Below are positions 28,380 through 41,545 of a stretch of 44,302 nucleotides of DNA, in pieces. Origin of the DNA: Phycisphaerales bacterium (lineage in GTDB: Bacteria > Planctomycetota > Phycisphaerae > Phycisphaerales > SM1A02); NCBI GenBank assembly GCA_028823105.1, contig JAPKCC010000013.1:1-44302 (forward strand). The letters are read 5' to 3'. The notes under the pieces were generated by a model. It saw only the letters and a list, made by a program, of their open reading frames with translations. It was not told where the DNA came from and did no database searches. The translations under genes and the position numbers were made by a program. Within the stretch, counting starts at the first letter, position 1. Each line of letters opens with the position of its first letter.

Positions 28380-29681
28380 TCAGGAACCGACGGTCGGCAT
28401 GAGCCACGACAAGTCGCCGCCCATCGCCGGTGCCGGGATCGACGCTCGAATCTCCGGCGCGGGCTTATTCGAGATTCGCATCAGTCCGTTTCGAACCAGA
28501 TTCCGGCAGAGGGTCAACTTCGCGTCATTGGCCATCAGATCCGGGGCATCGGCGATCCGGAAGATGGCGTGCTCCTCGAGGAAGCCCATCACCGGGTCGA
28601 GCTTGAGCGGGAGCGACATCGATCCGCCGCAGCGAATCCGATAGTCCATCGGTGTCCGCCGGACGCTCCACGGGCACCCCTCTGGTCGTTCGATGACGGT
28701 TTCGAGACTCATCGATTCCACACCGATCGCCGATTCGAACGAGCCGGTGGTGCCGGCTGCTCGCGCATAGGATTCCGAACTGATTGCCACGAGCCGATCG
28801 ACGTCGATCGGCGTCTCAAGGCCATCGGCAATGGCCGCCAGTTCCCGGAACATCTCGGCGGCCGAATTCTCCTTCTCCTCGCCCTTCATGATCGCGGTTG
28901 AGACCCGTCGACGAAGCCCCTCATCCTCGAAGGCAAGTAAGTCGACCAGCCTTGACAGAAACTCGTGCCGTCGAAGTGGATAGAGCCCGATCGTGAGATG
29001 AATCGAGTGCTCGGTCGTCGATGCCGCCGAATGCGGCACACCTCGCGGCAGATAGAGCAGATCGCCCGGATGCAGCGTCACCTCTCGAACCGGATCACCG
29101 TATTCCGGCTTTGAACTCTGGAGCATGGAAAACATCTCTGCCGCAAGCGGCGTGCTCTCGAGGGGCAGCGCCTGGTCCACCTCGTGGAGCCGCCAGGTCT
29201 TCGAACCGTCGGTTTGAAGAACCAGCACATCGTGACCATCGACGTGGGTGTCGAAGCCCTGTGATTGTGGCGGCGTGCAATAGACGTTGCACTTGACGTC
29301 GCACGCCAGCGTTTCCTTGAGGTCATCGATGATTCGTTCCACCGGCGGCCAGTACGCTTCCGCACCGTTGAAGATGATCGTCTTCCCCATCGCGAAGGAG
29401 GACGTGAGATGGCCCTCGCCGTTGTCCTCTGAGGCCCCCACCATCGCGTTCAGTTGCACCGTCTCCTCGGGATCTTCGCCTTTAGGAACCACTCGGACGT
29501 TCCCTCCGACCTGAGGTTTCATGTACCGGACGCAGTGGCCCATCGACTCGAGATCGAAGATGCCCTTGACGAGCTCTGGCGCCTTGCGCTCCAGATGCAG
29601 AATGTCCCGCTCCAAGTAATCTGAAAGAAATTCGGTCAATCCGATCGGGGCAAAGACCTTTGCGGCGGTTTGAATGGTCAT
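28380..29681 (-). CDS. JmjC/cupin_4-type 2-oxoglutarate oxygenase
   Basis: A 433-residue cytosolic JmjC-domain protein related to YcfD/RoxA, MINA53 and NO66 hydroxylases. The iron triad is H146-x-D148 and H217 (THVDGHDVLVLQ and YLPRGVPHSAA), and K161 in the TDGSKTW strand is a candidate 2-oxoglutarate ligand. The C-terminal 150 residues form the winged-helix-like part common to the family. Characterised relatives hydroxylate Arg or His in ribosomal proteins, but others act on peptides. It is divergent, with 115 bases between, from a sulfotransferase-like gene and the NHLM export operon, so tailoring of an exported peptide is a plausible but unproven role. Confidence 0.87.
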   Translation of the reverse strand: MTIQTAAKVFAPIGLTEFLSDYLERDILHLERKAPELVKGIFDLESMGHCVRYMKPQVGGNVRVVPKGEDPEETVQLNAMVGASEDNGEGHLTSSFAMGKTIIFNGAEAYWPPVERIIDDLKETLACDVKCNVYCTPPQSQGFDTHVDGHDVLVLQTDGSKTWRLHEVDQALPLESTPLAAEMFSMLQSSKPEYGDPVREVTLHPGDLLYLPRGVPHSAASTTEHSIHLTIGLYPLRRHEFLSRLVDLLAFEDEGLRRRVSTAIMKGEEKENSAAEMFRELAAIADGLETPIDVDRLVAISSESYARAAGTTGSFESAIGVESMSLETVIERPEGCPWSVRRTPMDYRIRCGGSMSLPLKLDPVMGFLEEHAIFRIADAPDLMANDAKLTLCRNLVRNGLMRISNKPAPEIRASIPAPAMGGDLSWLMPTVGS

Positions 29682-29796
29682 TGGATATCCGTCAGTCTCA
29701 AGTTAAGGGGAAAAGAATATCGTCGTGGATCTTCTCACTTAGACAATAGCAACAGCCGCCTCGAAGGCCACCATTGATTGTTAGGCTTTCGAACTC
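29682..29796. promoter_or_regulatory. Divergent promoter region, JmjC and sulfotransferase/export genes
   Basis: The 115-base spacer is more AT-rich than its surroundings and must contain the promoters of two divergent genes. On the minus strand a TTGTCT box (29741-29746) lies upstream of a GATATT-like box, but the spacing of about 19 is not ideal. Confidence 0.35.
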
Positions 29797-30756
29797 ATGA
29801 CGATGAATCCCGACAGAAAACTGGATGATCATCACGGGCTTGCCGAGATCGGCGTGCAGGACGGTTTCACACCAATCACGATCCTGCCGTCGAATGCGGC
29901 GCAAGGAACTCCTTTGCGGGTGATCTGGGCGGAGATCGGCCACGGCCCTTTTCATGCCCCATTCTTCGGCGAAGATCTCACGGTCCGACTGGCGGACGCA
30001 CGGTGGTTCGTCTCCACGGACGCCCCTCTTCTTGCCTACGCCATCCGGTCGCCCGGGGTGCCCTTGCGCGGCGCGATACTCCACATGTCCCGCTGTGGGA
30101 GCACGCTCGCTCGAAATCTTCTCGGAGCAACCGATCGATCACTGGTGATGTCAGAGGCCAGCCTCGTGAATTCTGCCCTCGCGGAATTCACCACCCGTTC
30201 ACTCCAGCCCGCGATGTCAGGATTCCTTCGCCCGGATGGCGACCGGCTCCAACGTGGTTACTTGAAGTGCACGAGTTGGAACGTCCTGGCCGCCGATCGA
30301 CTTCTCGATTCCTTCCCGGGATTGCCCCTGATATTCATCGAGCGAAACCCACTGGAAGTCCTCGTATCACTCAGTCGTACTCCGGGCTGGGGCGAAGGAT
30401 TTCCGAAGGAATTGAATTCACCCGAGCTTGGTGAGTCTGATAACGCTATCGAACGGGTCGCCATCAGACTCCGCGACTTTCTCGTGGCGGCTCGCCGACT
30501 CGAACGACAAGGCCTCTGCCGGATCGTCAAATACCCCGACATCACCTCGCGATTCATCGACGGGGACCTGCCCGAGTACTTCGGCTACGACGTGGACGCG
30601 ACGACTCGCACGAGAATGCTCGGCGTCGCCGAATTCAACAGCAAGAACCTCGGAAATCGATTCCGATCCGACTCCGCGGAAAAGCAGAAAGTCGCCAGGG
30701 AGAGCCCCGAGCTCAATCGGGCATACGAAAAACACTTACAAGGTCTTGAGGTCTGA
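29797..30756 (+). CDS. Sulfotransferase-like P-loop protein
   Basis: A 319-residue protein of the sulfotransferase superfamily. The phosphosulfate-binding loop is HMSRCGSTL at 96-104, followed by a helix and the VMSEASLVNS segment; the LIFIERNPLEVLVSL strand is the second cofactor site (R-N-P-x-E). The N-terminal 80 residues form a separate beta-rich domain of unknown role. Members with this CGST loop are often annotated sulfotransferase or, wrongly, aspartyl hydroxylase. It lies upstream of the NHLM export operon on the same strand, 129 bases before the adaptor gene, and divergent from a JmjC oxygenase; sulfation of an exported peptide or polysaccharide is conceivable. No experimental substrate is known. 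Confidence 0.8.
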   Translation: MTMNPDRKLDDHHGLAEIGVQDGFTPITILPSNAAQGTPLRVIWAEIGHGPFHAPFFGEDLTVRLADARWFVSTDAPLLAYAIRSPGVPLRGAILHMSRCGSTLARNLLGATDRSLVMSEASLVNSALAEFTTRSLQPAMSGFLRPDGDRLQRGYLKCTSWNVLAADRLLDSFPGLPLIFIERNPLEVLVSLSRTPGWGEGFPKELNSPELGESDNAIERVAIRLRDFLVAARRLERQGLCRIVKYPDITSRFIDGDLPEYFGYDVDATTRTRMLGVAEFNSKNLGNRFRSDSAEKQKVARESPELNRAYEKHLQGLEV

Positions 30757-30885
30757 ACAACGCTTCCAAACGGCGCTGCTGGCCTTTGCATTATCGGACG
30801 CTTTTCCCGTTTCGACGGTCCACGAGAACGGAGAATCACGGTATCCTCGATCTTGAACCTTCGTTCATTGAGAGGAAGACTCAGG

Positions 30886-32232
30886 ATGTCCCAGCGGAAG
30901 ATCCAAGCCATTACCAGATCGGAAGCCCAGGAGCATCTCTCTTCGGCGGAGCAGTTGGACCAGGCGATGGTGGTCGTGAAGGGACGCGCGTGGATCCTTC
31001 TTGCCGTCATCGTCGCGATTCTCGCAGCCGGGGTGTTCTGGGGATTCGTCGGGCGCATTCCCCGGGAGATCGACGGGGTCGGAATCACTGCAAAGGGCAG
31101 TCTCCCGATCAGCATCGACAATCCCGACATCACCGGCGCCGTCCTGAGCGTTTCCACCAAACGAGGGGATATCCTCGAAGCCGGCGCCACGATTGCGACG
31201 ATCGGAAGCCCCAAGGCGACCCAGGCCATCGTGCAGGCTCAAGCGAATGTTGATTCGCTCATCCAAGCGGACAAAGCCTCCACGGCCGCCGAAGAAACTG
31301 CGATGGCCAAACTCGCTGCTTCGACGAAACTCCAGACAGACACGGCGAACCGCAGCCTCGAAAGCAATAAGGTTCTGATAGCGCTCTACGAGAAACAAGT
31401 CGAAAACAGCAAGGCCCTCAGCGAGAAAAAGCTGATCCCCAAGAGCCAACTCATCACCGACCAATCCACCCTGTTCAGCACGCAGGAACAGGAATTAAGC
31501 CTCACCGCCCAGATCTCCCAGTTTCAGTCGACACTGCAACAAAGCCAGACCCAGATCGACTCGAGCCGCTCGAGCCGCCGATCCGCCATCGCGACGGCCG
31601 AAGCACAACTCGAAGCCACCCGGCAGGCGAAGGACGCGAACGAGAAGATCCTAGCGCCGATGCGTTGTGAAGTGCTCGCCATCCTCGTTCAACAGGGCCA
31701 ATTCGTCACACCAGGGGCGGCGCTTGGCACTGTCATCTTGATGCCTGAATCGACGGACGACGCGGCATCGAACGTCGACGTCATCGATCACGTCATCGGC
31801 TTTATTCCATTCGCCAAGGGCGTCCAGGTGAAGCCCGGAATGACGGCGGAGATCGCCCTTCCATTCGCAACCTCCACGCAGTACGGATTCATTAAGGGAG
31901 TCGTCCGGGATGTCGCCACGTATGCCGCCAGCGAAAGCTCCATCACGGCGATGCTGGGAAACGCGAGCCTGACGAAGATCGTGAAGGATACGACCGGCGG
32001 CGTCGCCCTCCAAGTCATCATCGATCTGACGCCCGACGAGCGCACCGCGAGTGGACTGGCGTGGACCTCACGTAAGGGATTCCCGTCGAGGCTGCCCCGC
32101 ATGTCGGAGTGCGATATCAAAATTTTCACCCTCGAGGACAAGCCGATCGACCTCGTTCTTCCTTGGTTCAAGCAGATCCTCGGAATCGACGTGGATACCG
32201 GCCCTGCCGGCGTGGCCGCTTCCAGCGGCTGA
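30886..32232 (+). CDS. NHLM/NHLP-type HlyD-like secretion adaptor
   Basis: A 448-residue periplasmic adaptor. The cytosolic N-terminus carries LSSAEQLDQ, the pattern seen in NHLM bacteriocin-system HlyD proteins; one membrane helix follows (about residues 38-60), then a lipoyl-like half (GAVLSVSTKRGDILEAGATI), a long coiled coil of about 120 residues, and the second lipoyl half (CEVLAILVQQGQFVTPGAALG). A GAGGAAG ribosome binding site about 9 bases before the ATG at 30886 decides the start. It would link the inner-membrane ABC transporters to the TolC-like channel. It opens the export operon, with a 28-base gap to the peptidase transporter. Confidence 0.9.
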   Translation: MSQRKIQAITRSEAQEHLSSAEQLDQAMVVVKGRAWILLAVIVAILAAGVFWGFVGRIPREIDGVGITAKGSLPISIDNPDITGAVLSVSTKRGDILEAGATIATIGSPKATQAIVQAQANVDSLIQADKASTAAEETAMAKLAASTKLQTDTANRSLESNKVLIALYEKQVENSKALSEKKLIPKSQLITDQSTLFSTQEQELSLTAQISQFQSTLQQSQTQIDSSRSSRRSAIATAEAQLEATRQAKDANEKILAPMRCEVLAILVQQGQFVTPGAALGTVILMPESTDDAASNVDVIDHVIGFIPFAKGVQVKPGMTAEIALPFATSTQYGFIKGVVRDVATYAASESSITAMLGNASLTKIVKDTTGGVALQVIIDLTPDERTASGLAWTSRKGFPSRLPRMSECDIKIFTLEDKPIDLVLPWFKQILGIDVDTGPAGVAASSG

Positions 32233-32260
32233 TCCGAACCTCGCGCAATAAGCAATTCGA

Positions 32261-34459
32261 ATGACCCGAGTCCCGTCACCAAGCAAGAATCTCGTTACGA
32301 CCCCAACCGTCCTCCAGATGGAAGCTGTCGAGTGCGGTGCCGCGTCGCTTGCGATGATCCTTGCCTACTACAAGCGGTTCATACCGCTTGAGAAACTTCG
32401 GGTCGATTGCGGCGTCTCGCGGGACGGATCCAAGGCGAACCGGATCAACATCGCCGCCAAGATGCACGGGCTCGAAGCCAAAGGCATGCGGCGGAGCATC
32501 GACGAACTTCGTACCCAGTCCCTTCGACCGTCGATCCTCTTCTGGGGATTCGGACACTTCGTCGTCTTTGAGGGGATGAAGGGCAACAAGTTCCGCATCA
32601 ACGATCCGGGCGGCGGTCGAAAACTCGTCTCCGCAGAAGATTTCAGCAAGAGCTTTACCGGCATCGTGCTTGAATTCAAACCCGGCAAGGACTTCCAGCC
32701 CGAGGGGGAACCGACGTCGCTGTTCTCCGGATTCCTCGCATGGACGAAAGGTAATCGGTCTGGAATCCTCTTTCCGATGCTCTGCGGCGCGGTCCTTGCG
32801 ATTCCCGGCCTGCTCATCCCAGGCCTCACGAGCGTGTTCATCAATGACGTGGTGATCGGCTCCGAGCCTCTCTGGGCAGGTTCGATCCTGCTCGCGATGG
32901 GAATCGCCGTTCTGTTGATGGCCATACTCACCTGGCTTCAGCAGGTCACGCTCGCACGGGTCCAGATACGGATGTTCCTGCAACATTCCCTTGAAATGTG
33001 CGAGCACATCGTTCGACTGCCGATGCTTTTCTTCCAGCAGAGATTCCCCGGGGACCTGGTTTCCCGATTCGTGTCCAACCAGACCATCGCCCAGAATCTC
33101 GCTGGCGGCATCTCCAACGGGATCGTCCAGATCACCACGGCGAGCGTCTACGCGATGGCGATGCTCGCCTATGACTGGAAGATCGGCGTACTCTCGATCG
33201 TTGCCACGACCGTTCTCATCGCCGCGGTGAGATACACCAATCGCAAGGTCATCGACAGCAATAACTCGCTCCAGCAGGAGATCGGACACCAGTACGGCGC
33301 CCTCATGATGATGCTCCGGGATATCCCCGAGATCAAGGCGACGAGTCGGGAAAACGATGTCTTCTCCAACTGGTCGGGCTACCAAGCCAAGAGCTCCAAT
33401 GCACAGCAACACCTCGGTCTGATCACCGCCTGGCTGGACGCCTGCCCCACGTTGATCAACGGCATCCTCCTCAACGTGATCATTCTCACCTACGGCTCTT
33501 TGCAGGTGATTAATGGCGAGCTGACGCTGGGTGGTCTCATCGCAATGCAAATGCTTGGTGGGCTCCTGATCGTTCCGGTCCAGCAGATCGTTCTGCTCGC
33601 AAGAATGCTCCAGACCACGCGGGCCGACCTGGCTCGTGTCGCTGACGTCCTCCACTATCCAGAGGACCCGACCCTCCAGATGGGTGTCGGGGTGAAACCT
33701 GAAGGGACCTCGGAGGAATCGATCCTTCCCGAACGACTGGCAGGCCGGGTGGAATTCCGATCAGTTCAGTTCGGCTACGACCGGACCGCCCCGGCGCTTC
33801 TCGACGATATCTCCTTCGAGGTGGATTCCGGAGCTCGAATCGCGGTGGTCGGCGGAACCGGGTCGGGGAAGTCAATCCTCGCGAACCTGCTCCTAGGACT
33901 GAACCTCCCCTGGTCGGGAGAGATTCTCTTGGACGGGACGCCACTCGCCGAAGTGCCTGCGGCGCAGCGTGTCAACTCTATCTCCGGCGTCAATCAGGAC
34001 GTGACGATCTTCCGAGGGTCGATCCGCGACAACGTGACCATGTGGGACTCAACAATTTCCGACGACCTGGTGATCCGCGCCATCCACGACGCGTCATGCA
34101 GCGAACTCCTCGAACGGCCCGGAGCGCTCGATGCAACCCTGCAGGAAGGCGGCCGAAATCTCAGCGGCGGCCAGAAACAACGACTTGAGATCGCACGATG
34201 CCTCGCCCGTAACCCGACCATCTTGGTGCTTGACGGTGCGACTTCCGCACTCGATTCAAAGACCGAATCGCACATCGAAGAACGGCTTCGCGCCCGTGGA
34301 TGCACCTCGCTGATTGTCTCCAATCGCGTGAACTCGATTCGAGACGCCGACGAGATATTGGTCCTCGGCGACGGCGGCATTGCCGAACGAGGTACTCACG
34401 AGGAACTCCTCGCACTTGGCGGCACGTACCACCGACTGGTCGGAGGGGCTGACGCATGA
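32261..34459 (+). CDS. NHLM-type C39 peptidase/ABC transporter with degenerate ATPase
   Basis: A 732-residue inner-membrane transporter. Residues 1-145 are a C39 peptidase with the full triad: oxyanion Q19, nucleophile C25 (MEAVECGAASL), H99 and D115; the SRDGSKANR segment is typical of the NHLM family. Six membrane helices lie between about 165 and 440. The nucleotide-binding domain has intact Walker A (GGTGSGKS) and signature LSGGQ. However, Walker B reads LVLDGATSALD, so the catalytic glutamate is Gly (659), and the H-loop reads VSNRVNSI with Asn (688) for His. It should cleave a leader after Gly-Gly and export the cargo, but its own ATP site looks catalytically weak. Its ATGA stop overlaps the partner transporter start. 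Confidence 0.92.
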   Translation: MTRVPSPSKNLVTTPTVLQMEAVECGAASLAMILAYYKRFIPLEKLRVDCGVSRDGSKANRINIAAKMHGLEAKGMRRSIDELRTQSLRPSILFWGFGHFVVFEGMKGNKFRINDPGGGRKLVSAEDFSKSFTGIVLEFKPGKDFQPEGEPTSLFSGFLAWTKGNRSGILFPMLCGAVLAIPGLLIPGLTSVFINDVVIGSEPLWAGSILLAMGIAVLLMAILTWLQQVTLARVQIRMFLQHSLEMCEHIVRLPMLFFQQRFPGDLVSRFVSNQTIAQNLAGGISNGIVQITTASVYAMAMLAYDWKIGVLSIVATTVLIAAVRYTNRKVIDSNNSLQQEIGHQYGALMMMLRDIPEIKATSRENDVFSNWSGYQAKSSNAQQHLGLITAWLDACPTLINGILLNVIILTYGSLQVINGELTLGGLIAMQMLGGLLIVPVQQIVLLARMLQTTRADLARVADVLHYPEDPTLQMGVGVKPEGTSEESILPERLAGRVEFRSVQFGYDRTAPALLDDISFEVDSGARIAVVGGTGSGKSILANLLLGLNLPWSGEILLDGTPLAEVPAAQRVNSISGVNQDVTIFRGSIRDNVTMWDSTISDDLVIRAIHDASCSELLERPGALDATLQEGGRNLSGGQKQRLEIARCLARNPTILVLDGATSALDSKTESHIEERLRARGCTSLIVSNRVNSIRDADEILVLGDGGIAERGTHEELLALGGTYHRLVGGADA

Positions 34460-37323
34460 ACACGCCCGACCATTCATCCTCCGACTCCGCGAGCCTCGGT
34501 GCCGCACTCGAGATCTCGGCGTCCGCCCACGAATTTCCGAAGAGCGTCCGAACCATCACCGTCCAGTCCGGCACCTTGTACGTGTTCGCACGCCGCCGGC
34601 GAGAGACGGGTTACTCGGCGCAATCCCGCATTCTCGAACTGCCCGCTGATTCCATTCTGGTACTCCCCGATTCTTCGGATTCCTCGATTCAATTCCGGAT
34701 CGCCGGGTCGAGTTCGACACGGGCTCGCGGGCTTGGCCAGGATGCCACGGAAGCACTCCTGGCATCGAGCGACGGCGCCTCGTGCATCAACACCCTGTGC
34801 GACGCGATCACCAATCAGACCTCGGAGACGGTCGCCCCTGAGGGAGCACCAACGGTCGCGACGATCGGCGTCGAGTTGGAACTTGATCCGGGCCGTTCAT
34901 TGGTGGCCACATCCCCTGATCAACCGGTGACCTGGCTCTTCGAAGCAGAGGGCGGTGGCCTGATCGCCACGCCGGCAACCTCCTGTGGTCCCATCACCGT
35001 CGACGGTCCACGTCGACTGATGCCATTCGACACCTCCGGCGCCGTCGAACGGATGAGTCCGGCGGTCATGGCCGAAACGTTGTCGACCCTTTTTCTCGAG
35101 TTCACTGACCAACGCCTGCAGCTTGAGGACCTCACCTTTGGCCAGCGGGTCCGCGCGAGCGAGCGTGCCGACGTGGCGAGAGTGGACTCGACCGCGAATG
35201 CGGTCGCGGCGGGAATTTCCCTCGGACGCCCGACGCCTCTCGCGGCCAACGCCAGTTCTGGGTTCGATGCCGCATGCCGCCGCGTCGTCTTGGAACTGGG
35301 CGTCACGATCAAGAACAAGATCGTCTATCAGCAGAACACGGCACGGTCACCGATCGAACAGTTCGCCCGGGCGGCCAGAGTCCAGATACGAGAAGTAACG
35401 CTTGAGACCGGATGGTGGAACAGCGAATGCGGCCATCTGCTCGGTTGGGTCGACGAGAATCGAACCCCGGTTGCGTTGATCCGCCAACGCCGCGGATATC
35501 TGGCTCATGTGCATCATGAGACCAACCAGGTCGAGAAGATACCGGTCGATGCCGCATTCGCGGCGAGACTTTCGGCCCGATGCGTCACCTTCTATCCGTC
35601 ACTTCCGGCGCGGGCCATCACGATTCGAGATCTCCTCAAGCTCGCATTCCGAGGAAGCCGAACCGACCTGCTCAAAACCCTCGCCGCGACCATTTCCATC
35701 TCGCTCCTGAACCTCGTGACCCCCCTGGTGATCGCCCTGATCACCAGCACAGTGGTTCCACTCGCCGACGTCGATCTGGCCTACGCCCTCGGGCTCGGCC
35801 TCTTGCTCGCCGCATTCTCCACCGCGCTCATCGGCGTGGTCTCCGGATTGGCGTTCCTTCGCGTCGAGTCTCGATCGAGCTACTTTCTGCTGGCCGCGTT
35901 CGTCGATCGAACCCTGCAACTCCCCTCAACCTTTTTCCGCGAAACCAGTTCCGGCGACCTGTCCCAACGAGTGATGGCGATCGAGCAAATCCGAAGCAAG
36001 CTCACGCAGTCGGTGATCATGAGCCTCACCAGCTTCGTGTCAGGATTTTCGTTCGTCGCACTCATGTTCACGTATGACAGCACCCTCGCGCTGTACGCGA
36101 GCGGGCTGGTGGTTGGGCTGATCGTCGGCTTAGTCACGATCGGAGTCCTACTCGCACGACGCGAGTACATCGAGTCGGTCAGCAAGGGCGAGCTTGACGG
36201 CACCGCCCTTGATCTGATCACCGGCGTGCGACAAGTGAGACTGCAGGGATCATCCGCCAGGATGATCGCCATGCTGCTCGAGCGGCTCGGCGACGTCGCT
36301 CGGCAGGCGTACATCACGCAGATCCTCAGCGCCATTCTCACCCTGTTCACCCGCGTCTACCCCCTTGCCGCGACGCTGACGATCTTCGGGATCTTCGCGT
36401 ATGGAATCCAGCAGGGCGACAAGACCATCTCCAACGCAGATTTCCTTGGGTTTAACGCCGCACTCGGAGGATTCTTCGCCAGCACCACCCTCATCGGCAT
36501 GACCTTCAATTCGTTGGTCTCGATCATCCCGATGTACCAACGTCTCCGGCCTCTGATGGATGCGGTACCGGAAATCGCGGAGAACATGCCCTCGCCAGGT
36601 CGGCTCGACGGGCGAATCGAACTCCGCAACATCACGTTCCGATATGACGAGGCTCTTCCCCTCGTCCTCGATGGAGTCGACATGTACGCCGACCCGGGCG
36701 AATGCATCGCCATCGTCGGCCAGACGGGCTGCGGTAAGTCGACGCTGATGAAAATCATCCTCGGCCTGGAAAAGGCCGAAGCAGGATCAGTCTTCTTCGA
36801 TGGCGTCGAACTCGAAAGCGTCGACGCCGCTCAGGTCCGCTCCCAACTCGGCGTGGTGATGCAGTCGAACACCCTCACCGGAGGCAACGTCAGGAGCACG
36901 ATCCTCGGCCTCGGGACCGAGAAGTCGATGGACGTCGCCTGGGATGCCGCTCGTCTCGTGCAGATGGAGCAGGAAATCGACGACATGCCGATGGGCATGC
37001 TCACGATGGTCTCGGCGGGCTCTTTCTCTGGCGGCCAAGCCCAACGCCTGCTCATCGCCCGGGCACTCGTCGGTAATCCTCGAATCCTGCTGCTGGATGA
37101 GGCCACCAGCGCGCTCGATGACCACTCGCAAGCCGCCGTCACCGCAAGCATCATGCAACTGGGCGCCACCCGGGTCATCATTGCTCATCGTCTCAGCACC
37201 ATTCTGGAGGCTGATCGGATCTACGTTCTCGACAAGGGGAGCGTCGTTCAGACCGGAACCTTCGAGGAATTGAGCTCGGTTCCGGGCCTGTTCCGCGAGT
37301 TGGTGGAGAATCAGAGACTGTGA
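34456..37323 (+). CDS. NHLM-type partner ABC transporter
   Basis: A 955-residue ABC exporter half, as long as NHLM partner transporters usually are. The first 400 residues are a cytosolic region of unknown role with no C39 triad, starting with a cupin- or cyclic-nucleotide-binding-like beta fold. Membrane helices follow at about 410-690. The nucleotide-binding domain is intact: Walker A GQTGCGKS (755-762), signature FSGGQ (857-861), Walker B glutamate E882 in LLLDEATSALD, and H911 in IAHRLSTI. It pairs with the preceding transporter, which has a degenerate site, so the dimer should have one catalytic ATP site. The start and stop overlap both neighbours (ATGA and GTGA), giving strict co-translation. 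Confidence 0.93.
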   Translation: MNTPDHSSSDSASLGAALEISASAHEFPKSVRTITVQSGTLYVFARRRRETGYSAQSRILELPADSILVLPDSSDSSIQFRIAGSSSTRARGLGQDATEALLASSDGASCINTLCDAITNQTSETVAPEGAPTVATIGVELELDPGRSLVATSPDQPVTWLFEAEGGGLIATPATSCGPITVDGPRRLMPFDTSGAVERMSPAVMAETLSTLFLEFTDQRLQLEDLTFGQRVRASERADVARVDSTANAVAAGISLGRPTPLAANASSGFDAACRRVVLELGVTIKNKIVYQQNTARSPIEQFARAARVQIREVTLETGWWNSECGHLLGWVDENRTPVALIRQRRGYLAHVHHETNQVEKIPVDAAFAARLSARCVTFYPSLPARAITIRDLLKLAFRGSRTDLLKTLAATISISLLNLVTPLVIALITSTVVPLADVDLAYALGLGLLLAAFSTALIGVVSGLAFLRVESRSSYFLLAAFVDRTLQLPSTFFRETSSGDLSQRVMAIEQIRSKLTQSVIMSLTSFVSGFSFVALMFTYDSTLALYASGLVVGLIVGLVTIGVLLARREYIESVSKGELDGTALDLITGVRQVRLQGSSARMIAMLLERLGDVARQAYITQILSAILTLFTRVYPLAATLTIFGIFAYGIQQGDKTISNADFLGFNAALGGFFASTTLIGMTFNSLVSIIPMYQRLRPLMDAVPEIAENMPSPGRLDGRIELRNITFRYDEALPLVLDGVDMYADPGECIAIVGQTGCGKSTLMKIILGLEKAEAGSVFFDGVELESVDAAQVRSQLGVVMQSNTLTGGNVRSTILGLGTEKSMDVAWDAARLVQMEQEIDDMPMGMLTMVSAGSFSGGQAQRLLIARALVGNPRILLLDEATSALDDHSQAAVTASIMQLGATRVIIAHRLSTILEADRIYVLDKGSVVQTGTFEELSSVPGLFRELVENQRL

Positions 37324-39194
37324 TTAACCCGCACCTCGACATCCTCGCTTTCCGACGCAGCCGCGCCGTTTCCTTGGTGATGCTCCTTGGCTTCGTTGGT
37401 TGCGCCTCCCCGCTCGACACCGATCATGAGGACATCCGCACGATCAAGGAACAACTTGGAGAGATCCGTGTTCTTGGTGAAAGCAAAGGTCTGACCGAAG
37501 GCAAGAGCCTCGATTCGATCCTCAATCCAGACACGGAGGACGATCGCAAGAAGCAGGACCAGCTTCAAATCGAGGAACGGCTCAACCGGATCGCAGATTT
37601 GGTCAAGCCTGGAAAGACGATCGACCTCACGCTTCAGGAAACCCGACGTCGGACTCTGGAGCACAACCTCTCCATTCAGGCCGTCCTTCTCGACCCCAAG
37701 ATCGCGAAGCAGGCCGTGCGACTGCAACAGGCCAAGTTCGAGAACACGTTCAATCTCAGCGTCACCCAGTCCCGCACGGTGTCTCCGGGCTACAACAGCG
37801 TCGCGAGAAGAAATATCGACGTCGAATCCGACACTTTTGTCGCGGTGCCGTCGGTCAGCGTCCCGCTCCGAAGCGGCGGAGATCTGACGATCGACTGGAC
37901 TTCCGAGTCGTACCTGAATTCTTCAGGTGGAACGGATTCCGGACTCGCGATCATTCAGCCGGGCGTCTCGATCACCCAGCCGATCCTTCGCGATGCCGGG
38001 TATGACTACAACGAGTCATCCATCGTGATCGCGCAGGCTGCCGAAGCCGAAGCTGAAGCCGCGACCCAATTCTCGATACTCAGCACGCTGCTCGCCGCGG
38101 AGACCGCGTACTGGAACGTGTACCTCGCCACCGAAACACTCGCCGTCCAGAAGGACATCTACACCTACACCAAGAAAACCCTCGACGATACCCGGCTACA
38201 GGTCAATGCCGGTTTCGGATCGATTTCGTCGGTTTACAACTTCGAAGTCACGCTCTCCAGCACGGTCTCCAACCTGATCTCCGCGGAAGACAATCTGGCG
38301 ACCGCCATTCGAAACCTGAAATCGATGATGCAGATTCCGGAACTCTCGCTCGATGGGTCGGTCATCATCACGCCATCGACCAAGCCGATTCTTCGAACAT
38401 ACGACTTCAATACCACGCTCCTGGTGGATGCTGCGGTCCGAAATCGCGCCGACCTGCTCGAACTCGAAGCGGAACAGATCGCCGCAACCATCGAAGTCCT
38501 CGCGGCCAAGAACCAACTCCTCCCTGAGTTGGACTTCATGGCGAGCTACACCCTCAATGGCTTTGACTCCAACGGCCGGTCACTGACCACCGCCCGGCAG
38601 GACCTTTTTGACGGCCTACGAACCGCCAACGAGCCAGGCTTCTCGATCGGCGTGATGGCATCCGTGCCGCTCGGAAATGAAGCGGCAAACGCGAACTATC
38701 AATCTGCTCTGTTCTCCCGACTCCAGACGATCGCCAACACCCGCCAGCAGGAGGTCACCGTCGCGACCGAGGTCCTGAACGCGATCGACAGCCTCGAATT
38801 CGGCTGGGAGCAGATCCTCATCGCCCGATACGAGGTCGCGGCCGCAAACCGAAATCTGGAAGCCATGAGGACCTTGTTTCAGATGGGCGAGCGAAACAGT
38901 AACGATCTTGCCAATGCCATTAATCTGCTCTCCCGGGCTCGGATCAATAGCGCCACGCAGGATTCGGACTACCAGATCGCCCTCGCGAACCTTGCCGCCG
39001 CGACCGGCTGCCTGCTCGGCCACGCGGGCGTGGAATGGAGGGATGCGAGTCATCTTGAACTTCTCGAAGCCCCTCAGACGCTCTCGCCACCGATTCCCTT
39101 CGACGTCGCGGACGGAATACCGCCGGCATCCAGCTCGAAGGAAGAGGCTCCTTCGGCCACCGTCGCACCCGTGCCCGTGACCAACGATGAGTGA
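37320..39194 (+). CDS. TolC-like outer-membrane efflux lipoprotein
   Basis: A 624-residue outer-membrane factor. The N-terminus has a lipobox (LGFVGC), then a 70-residue acidic/helical region unlike classic TolC. Residues 100-590 carry the two-fold OEP repeat: long helices such as QETRRRTLEHNLSIQAV and beta-strand pairs before and after PLRSGGDLTIDW and SVPLGNEAANA. The C-terminal tail is low-complexity. It would form the channel through which the exported peptide leaves. The GTG start forms GTGA with the transporter stop. It overlaps the next gene by 8 bases. Confidence 0.9.
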   Translation: MINPHLDILAFRRSRAVSLVMLLGFVGCASPLDTDHEDIRTIKEQLGEIRVLGESKGLTEGKSLDSILNPDTEDDRKKQDQLQIEERLNRIADLVKPGKTIDLTLQETRRRTLEHNLSIQAVLLDPKIAKQAVRLQQAKFENTFNLSVTQSRTVSPGYNSVARRNIDVESDTFVAVPSVSVPLRSGGDLTIDWTSESYLNSSGGTDSGLAIIQPGVSITQPILRDAGYDYNESSIVIAQAAEAEAEAATQFSILSTLLAAETAYWNVYLATETLAVQKDIYTYTKKTLDDTRLQVNAGFGSISSVYNFEVTLSSTVSNLISAEDNLATAIRNLKSMMQIPELSLDGSVIITPSTKPILRTYDFNTTLLVDAAVRNRADLLELEAEQIAATIEVLAAKNQLLPELDFMASYTLNGFDSNGRSLTTARQDLFDGLRTANEPGFSIGVMASVPLGNEAANANYQSALFSRLQTIANTRQQEVTVATEVLNAIDSLEFGWEQILIARYEVAAANRNLEAMRTLFQMGERNSNDLANAINLLSRARINSATQDSDYQIALANLAAATGCLLGHAGVEWRDASHLELLEAPQTLSPPIPFDVADGIPPASSSKEEAPSATVAPVPVTNDE

Positions 39195-40263
39195 GCCCGT
39201 CGACCTTTCGGCTTATCTCGCGAACGCCTTCCTCCCCGCAGCCAGCAAGTCGCTTCCGACCCTCCCGCTTGCGGACGAATCACACGTGGCGGGGTGGAGG
39301 TCATGGCGGCCCGACGGCCCCATGACCCCAGCGGACCTCGCCGAACGCATGCCACAGGCCGCCTTCGCAATCGAAGCGGGAATGGCGAAGAGCCCTGCCT
39401 ATCGGGCAGCGATTCTGGCGGCTGATGCTTCATCAATCCCTTCGAACCCGGTCCTACCCAATGGGGCACTGGACTTCTCGGTTCAGGCCGACTTCGCCGG
39501 GCATCTCCCGGTCGTCCGCACCCACGATCGCGACCTCTTCGAGTGGATGTTCCGGACCCTCGGCGCTCGCTGCGAGCCCGTTCCGATCTCGCCTCAGGTC
39601 CACGCCTTACTGATCACCGGACTCATCGCGCCCGGTCGAATCACCGCCACCCACGAAGCGTGGGACGCGGGCGAATTCCGCGACGACCCCGCGGTGACCG
39701 GCATCGATCAGTGGAACCAGGCGATGCCGTTGCTCGACAAGGCCGACCCTACGCGGTTTCGAGACCGGTTACTCATCGTGCACGACGACGTCTATGCCGG
39801 TCTGGAGGCGATCGAACTCGATCCCCCGCTCGATCCTACAACGTGGCTTGAGAAGTCGAGGATCATCCGTCATCACCATGAGTTCGCTCACTATGCGACC
39901 AGGCGTCTCTTCCAGAACATGCGGCTGAACCTGCATGACGAGATCATTGCCGACTGCATGGGTTTCCTGGCGGCGTTTGGCCGGTTCGACTCGACGCTCT
40001 TCCTTCGAGCCATGGGTATCGAATCGGATCGAGTGCCGGTGTCGGACGCTCGAGCGTGGACCTACGTACAGGGATTGACGGAACCAGACGTGCTCGAGGC
40101 CTGCCGGCTGACCATTGATGCCGCTCGCAACACCGACGCGTGGATCGAACTCATGCCGGGAATCTCCCCCCCGCAGGTACTCCAGTGCCTAGCGAGGACG
40201 AGCCTTCCCGAAATCGCCGGACCTGATGCCATCGAACTCCTGACCGCCACGCTCGAAAGCTAA
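39187..40263 (+). CDS. HEXXH-containing putative metallopeptidase of the export operon
   Basis: A 358-residue protein with no signal peptide. It contains RHHHEFAHYATRR, giving HEXXH at H231-H235, and 17 residues later NLHDEIIADCMGF, where E252 and D256 could complete a zinc site (gluzincin-like ExxxD). I do not recognise the N-terminal 200 residues. It begins 8 bases before the end of the TolC-like gene, so it belongs to the export operon. Possible roles: leader or cargo processing in the cytosol, or turnover of immature peptide. All are inferred from the motif and position. Confidence 0.72.
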   Translation: MSEPVDLSAYLANAFLPAASKSLPTLPLADESHVAGWRSWRPDGPMTPADLAERMPQAAFAIEAGMAKSPAYRAAILAADASSIPSNPVLPNGALDFSVQADFAGHLPVVRTHDRDLFEWMFRTLGARCEPVPISPQVHALLITGLIAPGRITATHEAWDAGEFRDDPAVTGIDQWNQAMPLLDKADPTRFRDRLLIVHDDVYAGLEAIELDPPLDPTTWLEKSRIIRHHHEFAHYATRRLFQNMRLNLHDEIIADCMGFLAAFGRFDSTLFLRAMGIESDRVPVSDARAWTYVQGLTEPDVLEACRLTIDAARNTDAWIELMPGISPPQVLQCLARTSLPEIAGPDAIELLTATLES

Positions 40264-40339
40264 GCCCGCCGTGGCCCGAGCGGCGGCAAGCGTTCCTGCC
40301 ACACCACACACCAACGTCGGATCAGGTATCAACTCCGCT

Positions 40340-40762
40340 ATGAATCCGCTCGACGACCCCCTCGGACATCTGAAGTCCCTCCCTGACCGAGCCGCTCGTT
40401 ATGAGTGGCTGGATGGCCTCGACCGAATCGATCGCAATCGGGTTCTTAATCGGCTCGCGGAAGAGGACCGACGTCGCTATCGGCAACACACCGATGCCCG
40501 AGTCAAGGCGGGAAAGAAGCTCACGCTTGCCACGGCCGACGCGGCTCGCACCGCTGCCGCGATCGCCGGAAGAGCCACCGAGATCGGCGACATGATCCAG
40601 GCGCTCTACACCGTCATGCCCAAACTCACGGAAAGCCAACGAGCATGGGTCGAACGGATCGATCAAGCCGGCGCCGCGGCACGAGGCAGCTCGCGTTTCT
40701 CACCTCGACAGGCCTCGGTGATCCGCGATCTCTATCGCAAGCGGTTCCAGGGAAAATCGTGA
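40340..40762 (+). CDS. Small charged helical protein of unknown function
   Basis: A 140-residue hypothetical protein, mostly helical, rich in Arg, Ala and Asp, with no signal peptide or transmembrane segment. An Ala-rich middle section (ADAARTAAAIAGRATEIG) is flanked by charged ends. It has no Gly-Gly leader motif and no cysteines, so it does not look like a RiPP precursor. ATG at 40340 is chosen; a GTG at 40271 would extend it by 23 residues. It is the last clear gene after the export operon, 76 bases behind the HEXXH gene. Confidence 0.55.
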   Translation: MNPLDDPLGHLKSLPDRAARYEWLDGLDRIDRNRVLNRLAEEDRRRYRQHTDARVKAGKKLTLATADAARTAAAIAGRATEIGDMIQALYTVMPKLTESQRAWVERIDQAGAAARGSSRFSPRQASVIRDLYRKRFQGKS

Positions 40763-40899
40763 CCCTAGAGCCGCGGCTCTGGAGAGCTGGCCTCGAAATC
40801 CACGTCTGGTTTCCGTCCGACCAGACCAGCCGTTATCGTGTCATCGCATCGCCGGCGGTACCGGCCAGTTCCTCGGTTGATCCGGCGAAGCCGTCGTGA
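40759..40899 (+). CDS. Possible 46-residue small ORF (doubtful)
   Basis: A GTG start overlapping the preceding stop (GTGA) opens 46 codons with Trp, Arg and aromatic residues near the N-terminus (MTLEPRLWRAGLEIHVW). The overlap style matches several neighbouring genes, but the reading frame is short, lacks a ribosome binding site and a leader motif, and may be chance. The rest of the interval to 41020 holds no other gene I can support. Confidence 0.2.
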   Translation: MTLEPRLWRAGLEIHVWFPSDQTSRYRVIASPAVPASSSVDPAKPS

Positions 40900-41020
40900 C
40901 TCCAGAGAGCGACGACTGGTTCCGCGTCGATCTCTACCTGCTCGAATGAAACCCGCCGTTTCGTCGGATGCTCCGTTTCGATTCTTCTCCCCAAGAATGC
41001 TCTGTAAGAAAGACCCCACC

Positions 41021-41545
41021 ATGCCCATCCACTCCAACACATTCGCCTCGAGATCCTGCTCCACCCTCGTCGCAACTTTCCTCGCCCTGATCACGCTTGC
41101 CGGATGCAATACCACCGGCCAGAACCGCCTGGACGGCCCACCAACGCTCACGGTCTACAACGCGCCGCCACTGATTCTTCAGACCGAAGCCCAAAAACGA
41201 GATGCCGGCGTCAATGCGATCGTCGGATGGCATGCAGACCTTGATGACTCCGAAGGCGAAGACGCGACCACCATCGGCGTCTGCAACGGCACCATACAGG
41301 TCACCCGTCTAGAGAAGGACACCGAGCATCGGATGACTCTGATTGAACTCGACTGGAACGGAAACACCGACTCCATCGTGGTTGGCGGGTCGCACCCGTA
41401 TCCGAAGAAGACCATCGAGACGGACACACCGATCGTCCGAGGCATTCTCGGGGGTACGGGGAAGTACCACGCCACCCGCGGCCAGATGATCAGCACCCGT
41501 CTCCCCAGTGGCTGGTATCGGCACGATATCTGGCTGATCGATTGA
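41021..41545 (+). CDS. Lipoprotein with dirigent/allene-oxide-cyclase-like C-terminus
   Basis: A 174-residue lipoprotein: signal peptide with lipobox LITLAGC, then a beta-rich domain. The C-terminal part GILGGTGKYHATRG matches the GGTGxxxxARG block shared by plant dirigent proteins and allene-oxide-cyclase-like barrels, and is preceded by the paired strands expected in such a barrel. Bacterial members have no known activity; a lipid- or phenol-binding barrel is the likeliest guess. The start at 41021 gives the signal peptide. It sits alone, 123 bases before the propeller-like gene on the same strand. Confidence 0.7.
   Translation: MPIHSNTFASRSCSTLVATFLALITLAGCNTTGQNRLDGPPTLTVYNAPPLILQTEAQKRDAGVNAIVGWHADLDDSEGEDATTIGVCNGTIQVTRLEKDTEHRMTLIELDWNGNTDSIVVGGSHPYPKKTIETDTPIVRGILGGTGKYHATRGQMISTRLPSGWYRHDIWLID

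What the first reader, a model, noticed from the sequence alone, without database searches (positions are those of the whole stretch)
28380..40263. Peptide export operon of NHLM type with oxygenase and sulfotransferase neighbours but no visible precursor
C39 ABC transporter, partner ABC transporter, HlyD-like adaptor and TolC-like channel match systems that export Nif11/nitrile-hydratase-leader peptides. A JmjC oxygenase and a sulfotransferase-like protein stand at its 5' side, and an HEXXH protein is coupled at its 3' side. Together they could be a modified-peptide system in which hydroxylation and sulfation are the tailoring steps. No short Gly-Gly leader peptide was found.
Basis: partly seen in the sequence, partly recalled or inferred. 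Interest (0 to 1): 0.7.

Follow-up and report, generated by a model that had tools for sequence, protein, structure and literature searches.

The report
Lanthipeptide exporter with scattered precursor genes
This stretch of a planctomycete genome encodes the export machine of a system that appears to make many ring-containing peptides from precursor genes scattered over the chromosome, and two enzymes beside it may decorate those peptides.

Summary
The genes are as described: JmjC oxygenase (28380-29681-), sulfotransferase (29797-30756+), HlyD, C39-ABC, partner ABC, TolC and an HExxH protein (DUF7005), the last five a tight operon. The window holds no precursor, but the genome does: five leader_NHLP matches (four over cut-off) on other contigs, with conserved leaders ending in AAGG and short Cys-rich cores. 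A class II lanthipeptide synthetase (LanM) with the ProcM-like CCG motif sits beside one. In three relatives LanM directly follows the exporter operon; in one of these, six precursors precede it. So this is the export module of a split, prochlorosin-like lanthipeptide system in Phycisphaerales. Against: cores from genomes with the sulfotransferase are not richer in Tyr (11 of 27 against 16 of 37), and both genes are missing from some clusters. Hydroxylation and sulfation are plausible accessory steps; lanthionine formation is the probable core chemistry. DUF7005 follows the exporter with or without LanM, so probably acts on leader or export. New variant of a known kind; no product observed.

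The parts
28380..29681 (-). JmjC_2 (PF08007) 2-oxoglutarate/Fe oxygenase, NO66/MINA-like; divergent from the rest
   Evidence: Pfam 89 bits; closest solved chains NO66 and MINA histidyl hydroxylases, E 2.6e-19 to 1.5e-16; H146, D148 and H217 invariant in 8 aligned homologues
29682..29796 (.). 115-base gap between divergent JmjC and sulfotransferase genes (presumed promoter region, inferred)
   Evidence: ORF coordinates; the divergent pair recurs in G020 and SP137
29797..30756 (+). PAPS-dependent sulfotransferase (inferred), tyrosylprotein-sulfotransferase-like fold
   Evidence: Sulfotransfer_3 sub-threshold; AlphaFold pLDDT 74.9; all 50 listed Foldseek rows are sulfotransferases, best E 2.4e-5, TM only 0.30-0.45; VIA best TPST1/TPST2/tick TPST Z 13.5-14.0; RCGST and R183/S191 invariant in 6
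30853..32232 (+). NHLM-type HlyD periplasmic adaptor (TTG start as listed; an ATG lies 33 bases on)
   Evidence: TIGR03794 159.7 bits, over cut-off; translation
32261..34459 (+). NHLM ABC1: C39 peptidase plus ABC permease/ATPase (cleaves after Gly-Gly and exports; inferred)
   Evidence: PF03412 110 bits; TIGR03796 821 bits against a cut-off of 853; QMEAVECG in the translation
34456..37323 (+). NHLM ABC2: partner permease/ATPase with an N-terminal extension of about 270 residues before the model match
   Evidence: TIGR03797 667 bits against a cut-off of 709, residues 272-953
37320..39194 (+). TolC-like outer membrane channel
   Evidence: OEP 147 bits
39187..40263 (+). DUF7005 (PF22541), HExxH protein; frequent partner of NHLM exporters
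   Evidence: Pfam 172 bits; HEFxH, E252 and D256 invariant in the 15-row alignment; exporter genes in 17 of 21 loci; model pLDDT 93.5

Best explanation
The window carries the export-and-finishing module of a split, prochlorosin-like class II lanthipeptide system. Precursors (an NHLP leader of about 81 residues ending in AAGG, then a short hypervariable core) are made from genes scattered over the genome. One substrate-tolerant CCG-type LanM, on another contig, dehydrates Ser/Thr and joins them to Cys. The C39 domain of ABC1 cuts after Gly-Gly, and ABC1/ABC2/HlyD/TolC carry the core out of the cell. DUF7005 acts on leader or export. JmjC hydroxylates and the TPST-like enzyme sulfates some of the peptides before export. 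Shown: gene content, scattered precursors, LanM with CCG, shared operon in relatives, recurrent linkage of JmjC, sulfotransferase and DUF7005. Inferred: every chemical step, the substrate residues, the order of events, and that this exporter rather than the second one on C109 serves these precursors.
For: Own genome: 5 NHLP leader matches, 4 over cut-off; the same search rang in 0 of 14 control genomes. A LanM lies divergently beside one precursor, TIGR03897 521 bits against a cut-off of 304. The 8 of 41 genomes with a LanM (own plus 40 relatives) are exactly the 8 whose best ABC1 match is at least 50% identical. In G013, G020 and G005 the order is HlyD-ABC1-ABC2-TolC-DUF7005-LanM, and G005 has six precursors upstream. 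10 of 10 LanMs examined carry CCG (those of G006, G007 and G044 not examined), the ProcM-like motif (PMC10783134, passages). In 60 full precursors leaders are 69% alike while cores are 33% alike, as with shuffled cores (32%); Cys is 7.8% of core residues against 0.9% in ten window proteins. JmjC/sulfotransferase pair: in the genus, after LanM in G020, inverted in SP137. Among 392 phylum genomes close JmjC homologues (over 650 bits, 3 genomes) and the sulfotransferase (2 genomes; the own genome also has a relic on C158) lie beside the exporter. PAPS supply: two APS kinase matches in the genome.
Against: No product is known. The window's exporter has no precursor or LanM in the stretches read around it, in its own genome or in four genus relatives. 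A second NHLM-like exporter exists in the genome (C109). ABC1 and ABC2 fall just under the NHLM equivalog cut-offs. Only 48 of 71 cores contain Cys, so not all can form lanthionines. Cores from genomes with the sulfotransferase are not richer in Tyr: 11 of 27 against 16 of 37 in G004, G005 and G013; 7 cores from three other MAGs left out. JmjC and sulfotransferase are absent or unseen in several clusters: neither found in G005, and JmjC split with no sulfotransferase in G013.
Confidence: 0.77

Rival explanations
1. The exporter and LanM make lanthipeptides, but JmjC and sulfotransferase are neighbours with another job, for example hydroxylating a ribosomal protein (as NO66, MINA and RoxA do, recalled) and sulfating a cell-surface molecule.
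For: JmjC is nearest to ribosomal oxygenases among solved structures. In the window's genus a wider region is syntenic, so linkage within the genus counts once. Tyr is not enriched in cores of genomes with the sulfotransferase.
Against: The pair keeps company with the exporter in two other arrangements. JmjC without this sulfotransferase does so in G393. A distant JmjC directly follows an NHLM-like ABC pair in G057, with a peptide carrying a Gly-Gly motif (read by eye) two genes on. A Cupin_8/JmjC protein sits between NHLP-like precursors and a DUF7005 exporter in an acidobacterium. Neither gene was found in the 33 of 41 genomes without a LanM.
Confidence: 0.3
2. JmjC and sulfotransferase form a relay: JmjC installs a hydroxyl on a core residue and the sulfotransferase esterifies it, giving a sulfated hydroxy-amino acid in place of sulfotyrosine.
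For: They behave as a divergent gene pair. The lack of Tyr enrichment leaves room for another acceptor. A JmjC hydroxylase acts in a RiPP pathway (PMC12257519, passages).
Against: The fold is nearest to tyrosylprotein sulfotransferases. JmjC occurs without this sulfotransferase in G393, where a GNAT fills its slot. No chemistry seen.
Confidence: 0.2
3. DUF7005 is not a peptidase but an iron/2-oxoglutarate HExxH hydroxylase of the kind now known in RiPP clusters, making it a third tailoring enzyme.
For: HExxH proteins in RiPP clusters have turned out to be 2-oxoglutarate hydroxylases with a zincin-like fold (PMC12636437, passages). DUF7005 has no clear match to a solved peptidase.
Against: No member of the 15-row alignment matches an NCBIfam HExxH model even at E 10. 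DUF7005 accompanies the exporter with LanM and without, which suits a leader or export function better than core chemistry.
Confidence: 0.25
4. The operon is an ordinary type I exporter of an unmodified Gly-Gly peptide or protein, unrelated to the scattered NHLP precursors.
For: No precursor in the window; a second exporter is present.
Against: LanM and this exporter type form one operon in three relatives, one of them with precursors, and LanM and exporter occur in the same 8 of 41 genomes.
Confidence: 0.07

Closest known systems
Prochlorosins / synechococsins (ProcM, SyncM) of marine picocyanobacteria (PMC10783134, passages)
   Same: One CCG-type LanM for many precursors with a conserved leader ending in Gly-Gly and variable cores; precursors away from LanM (scattering in cyanobacteria partly recalled)
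   Different: Leader is NHLP (TIGR03793) and no Nif11 leader was found; here there is an NHLM-type exporter with DUF7005, plus JmjC and sulfotransferase
NHLM export systems (TIGR03794/03796/03797)
   Same: HlyD, C39-ABC and partner ABC together, NHLP precursors in the genome
   Different: ABC1 and ABC2 score 4-6% under the equivalog cut-offs; TolC and DUF7005 overlap in the same operon
RaxX-RaxST-RaxA-RaxB of Xanthomonas (PMC6637879, passages)
   Same: Sulfotransferase, HlyD-type adaptor and Gly-Gly-cleaving ABC exporter in one cluster; peptide sulfated and leader removed on export
   Different: RaxX is one peptide sulfated on Tyr, no LanM or JmjC in the passages seen; here many precursors, LanM and JmjC. 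RaxST was not compared by sequence
Sulfotyrosine lanthipeptides with SscST/SslST (mentioned in PMC12135136, passages)
   Same: Sulfotransferase in a lanthipeptide system
   Different: Actinomycete clusters with dedicated PAPS genes; no NHLM exporter mentioned in the passages seen. Sequences not compared
Biphenomycin clusters: JmjC hydroxylase BpmG and HExxH hydroxylase BpmH (PMC12257519, passages)
   Same: JmjC and HExxH proteins in a RiPP cluster
   Different: Related pathway built on MNIO, arginase and B12-radical SAM; no LanM or NHLM exporter in the passages seen

Membership tests
NHLM export system | HlyD over the NCBIfam cut-off (TIGR03794) | tested here: met
   159.7 against 156.2 bits
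NHLM export system | ABC1 and ABC2 over the NCBIfam equivalog cut-offs | tested here: not met
   821 against 853 and 667 against 709 bits, though each is the best-scoring family; described as NHLM-type, diverged
NHLM export system | NHLP or Nif11 precursors in the genome | tested here: met
   5 leader_NHLP matches, 4 over cut-off; no Nif11
Class II lanthipeptide system | LanM with dehydratase and LanC-like domains | tested here: met
   DUF4135 286 bits, LANC_like 108 bits; TIGR03897 521 against a cut-off of 304; on contig C112, not in the window
Class II lanthipeptide system | Lanthionine rings in the product | not testable with these tools
   Needs mass spectrometry
ProcM-like (CCG) LanM group | CCG motif (third Cys zinc ligand) | tested here: met
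   10 of 10 LanMs examined, own included; meaning of the motif from PMC10783134 passages
Prochlorosins | Nif11-type leader | tested here: not met
   0 matches in the own genome; leaders are NHLP. Works like a prochlorosin system, not filed as one
Prochlorosins | Conserved leader with hypervariable core in many precursors | tested here: met
   60 full precursors from own genome and relatives, leader identity 0.69, core 0.33 against 0.32 shuffled
PAPS sulfotransferases | Sulfotransferase fold with both PAPS-binding motifs | tested here: met
   Foldseek and VIA; RCGST, R183 and S191 invariant in 6; that these are the PAPS motifs is recalled. Pfam score is below the family cut-off
Tyrosylprotein sulfotransferases | Sulfates Tyr in a peptide | not testable with these tools
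   Fold nearest TPSTs, Z 13.5-14.0, but STF9 ties at 13.8; no Tyr enrichment
JmjC 2-oxoglutarate oxygenases | HxD...H iron triad | tested here: met
   H146, D148, H217 invariant in 8; the role of the triad is recalled
2-oxoglutarate HExxH hydroxylases (TIGR04267) | Match to the family model | tested here: inconclusive
   No match in 15 DUF7005 members at E up to 10; HMMER filters drop weak hits; no TIGR04267 member in 99 phylum genomes to compare
HExxH metallopeptidases (zincins) | Zincin fold around HExxH | tested here: inconclusive
   HEFxH plus E252/D256; 9 of the top 13 VIA rows are zinc peptidases (label recalled) but Z is only 3.3-4.2

The most novel reading that the evidence does not exclude
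A planctomycete runs a one-enzyme, many-peptide lanthipeptide library whose members are hydroxylated by JmjC and then sulfated on the new hydroxyl by a TPST-like enzyme, and are released by an exporter with its own HExxH processing protein. That would be a combinatorial RiPP library with a built-in hydroxylation-sulfation relay.
Probability: 0.17. Interest if true: 0.8.

Novelty: new variant of a known kind. Interest (0 to 1): 0.6.

Why it matters
Many-precursor, single-LanM peptide libraries are best known from picocyanobacteria, where their biological function is unknown (PMC10783134, passages). An unrelated lineage with the same logic but another leader family, an NHLM-type exporter and two extra tailoring candidates gives an independent case for asking what such libraries are for. 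It also gives DUF7005, a family of unknown function, a genomic role to test, and predicts sulfated or hydroxylated lanthipeptides that can be looked for.

Tried and rejected
Nif11 precursors in the own genome: none. Precursor inside the window: none at E up to 10; the one Gly-Gly-like short ORF my pattern gave (30418-30735-) is antisense inside the sulfotransferase and was rejected.

DUF7005 fold: no Foldseek match in PDB or in viral models with E up to 0.001 and VIA Z at most 4.2; the zinc peptidases among the top rows are weak support only. A profile hit of positions 117-160 to an antitoxin (E 0.032) is probably chance. TIGR04267 members to compare with: none in 99 phylum genomes.

Tyr enrichment as a test of Tyr sulfation: no support. 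Counting the five same-genus genomes as separate evidence for JmjC/sulfotransferase linkage was rejected, because a wider region is syntenic. In the 21 DUF7005 loci four show no exporter: L140, L143, L149, L153 (a weak 80-bit ABC piece in L140 was not counted). In L149 and L153 a contig end lies at the gene; L140 and L143 have about 10 kb on both sides and are real exceptions. The scan is pattern-based (83 candidate stretches, 21 confirmed), so 21 is a lower bound.

Papers: full-text searches found no paper with lanthipeptide, JmjC and sulfotransferase together, two with lanthipeptide and JmjC, four with lanthipeptide, sulfotransferase and sulfation, one with prochlorosin and sulfotransferase (listing only), three with prochlorosin and planctomycete (listing only). 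Searches listed 20 of 40 and 10 of 18. Most subscription journals are not in that library.
Full report
What is there. The window (contig C82 of a 3.35 Mb, 194-contig, 97% complete assembly) holds, from 28380 to 40263, a JmjC_2 oxygenase on the minus strand and, divergently, a sulfotransferase, an NHLM-type HlyD, a C39-ABC transporter, a partner ABC transporter, a TolC channel and DUF7005. The ABC1/ABC2, ABC2/TolC and TolC/DUF7005 reading frames overlap and HlyD ends 28 bases before ABC1, so these five are probably one transcript (inferred). HlyD is over its NCBIfam cut-off; ABC1 and ABC2 are best matched by the NHLM models but 4-6% under the equivalog cut-offs. Titles of the closest records name Phycisphaera and Phycisphaerales MAGs; that several are marine is recalled from sample names.

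Where the precursors are. The window has none: a leader profile finds nothing at E up to 10 in ORFs of 25 aa or more. The genome has five matches to leader_NHLP on contigs C7, C160 (two, one cut by the contig end), C112 and C76, four over cut-off; the control set of 14 genomes gave none. The cores after the Gly-Gly are GCGCGGTTNNCGYPHSILSLD, RTLAPYFC, ALAQGSFDPKCNTSFAVASTCPNCAP and GGGHNTQHATICQRGNMVPCDMINIGGNKSPFS. Of 41 genomes (own plus 40 relatives) 10 have such leaders, 9 over cut-off. A profile found 69 ORFs, partial ones and one chimera included, in the stretches read. In 60 full precursors leaders are 69% identical on average (600 random pairs), cores 33%, the same as against shuffled cores (32%); Cys makes 7.8% of core residues, 2.0% of leaders and 0.9% of ten window proteins. 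Of 71 cores 48 contain Cys. Several precursors lie at contig ends, so the count in this genome is a lower bound. Two core families are conserved between species (GCGCGGTT......CNTSF...CP...).

The modifying enzyme. Divergently beside the C112 precursor lies a 1146-aa LanM: DUF4135 and LANC_like, TIGR03897 521 bits against 304, nearest solved chains LicM2 and CylM. Ten of ten LanMs examined have the CCG motif (those of G006, G007 and G044 were not examined), which marks the promiscuous ProcM-like group (PMC10783134, passages). LanM occurs in 8 of 41 genomes, the same eight whose best ABC1 match is at least 50% identical. In G005 the order is six NHLP precursors, HlyD, ABC1, ABC2, TolC, DUF7005, LanM; in G013 and G020 it is HlyD to LanM. 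In the window's own genome and in G001 and G003 LanM lies with a precursor on another contig.

JmjC and sulfotransferase. In the 41 genomes JmjC is in 7 (in G013 split over two frames) and the sulfotransferase in 6; all of these carry a LanM. In five genus members a wider region is syntenic, and I count it as one case. Further cases: G020, where the divergent pair follows LanM, and SP137 (L141), where the pair is inverted with JmjC next to HlyD and the sulfotransferase cut by the contig end. In G393 JmjC is there but a GNAT occupies the sulfotransferase slot. Among 392 phylum genomes close JmjC homologues (over 650 bits) are in three, and each lies on the exporter contig; two weaker matches exist: G057, where JmjC directly follows an NHLM-like ABC pair and a peptide with a Gly-Gly motif (read by eye) lies two genes on, and G224, a contig-start fragment without visible exporter. 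The sulfotransferase is in 2 of 392 at E up to 1e-10, both beside the exporter; the own genome also has a relic on C158. In an acidobacterial DUF7005 locus (L150) three NHLP-like precursors (27-34 bits), a GNAT and a Cupin_8/JmjC protein precede the exporter. JmjC keeps its HxD...H triad in 8 homologues and is nearest NO66 and MINA. The sulfotransferase model (pLDDT 74.9) matches only sulfotransferases in the 50 rows listed, with TM-scores of 0.30-0.45; in the second look seven of the top eight are tyrosylprotein sulfotransferases, Z 13.5-14.0, with STF9 tied. The genome has two APS kinase matches.

Against the tailoring idea. Tyr-containing cores are 11 of 27 in genomes with the sulfotransferase and 16 of 37 in G004, G005 and G013; seven cores from three other MAGs were left out. 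So either few precursors are sulfated, or the acceptor is not Tyr, or the target is something else. G005 (88% complete) has precursors, LanM and exporter, but neither gene was found. A second NHLM-like exporter on C109 could also serve the precursors.

DUF7005. A pattern-based scan of one genome for each of 84,980 species gave 21 loci; 17 have NHLM-type exporter genes in reach and 8 a LanM. In one (L145) DUF7005 and LanM share one open frame. Exporter-linked copies come from records named as Planctomycetes, Acidobacteria and proteobacterial families, with LanM or without. That suits an action on leader or export. HEFxH, E252 and D256 are invariant in 15 rows; the model is confident (pLDDT 93.5) but has no clear fold match. 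HExxH proteins in RiPP clusters can be hydroxylases (PMC12636437, passages), so its chemistry is open.

Reading. Most likely this is the export-and-finishing module of a prochlorosin-like lanthipeptide system whose LanM and precursors lie elsewhere. It is not a prochlorosin by leader family. Precedents for single features are in print: sulfotransferase with Gly-Gly exporter (RaxST; PMC6637879, passages), lanthipeptide sulfotransferases (PMC12135136, passages), JmjC in a RiPP cluster (PMC12257519, passages). I did not find the combination in the listings. No product has been seen, so every chemical step is inference.

Noticed in passing
L097:3-338 (G000:C158) and L096:7873-8172 (G006:C22): C-terminal part of a sulfotransferase as a relic: in the own genome fused in frame to part of an NHLP leader at the contig start, in G006 just downstream of two precursors.
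   Followed up: partly
L097:308-1252, L096:6959-7903, L125:5328-6320, L168:2265-3275: A GNAT acetyltransferase family next to precursors or the sulfotransferase relic in G000, G006 and G001, and in the sulfotransferase slot of G393; a possible further tailoring enzyme.
   Followed up: partly
L050 (G000:C109:1-9451): Second NHLM-like exporter in the own genome: HlyD 166.6 bits over cut-off, ABC1 332 and ABC2 286 far below theirs.
   Followed up: partly
L145:9992-14371: DUF7005 and LanM in one uninterrupted frame of 1459 aa, a possible natural fusion in one MAG.
   Followed up: no
L166:113-8844 (G057:C90): HlyD-ABC1-ABC2-JmjC in one direction, then a gene without Pfam match and a small ORF with a Gly-Gly motif and an Arg/His/Asp-rich tail.
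   Followed up: partly
L150:3933-19028: Acidobacterial cluster: three NHLP-like precursors, GNAT, Cupin_8/JmjC, then DUF7005-TolC-HlyD-ABC1-ABC2.
   Followed up: partly
L101:6384-6938, L102:6158-6712, L098:7704-8165: ORFs with two NHLP leader-like units in a row; that in L098 shows no Gly-Gly core.
   Followed up: no
G006:C54:12076-15474 and G007:C250:314-3709: LanM matches contain one in-frame TGA each; not examined further.
   Followed up: no
window 40271-41545: Two ORFs after DUF7005 without Pfam match; similar sequence was seen only in the genus loci among those compared.
   Followed up: no
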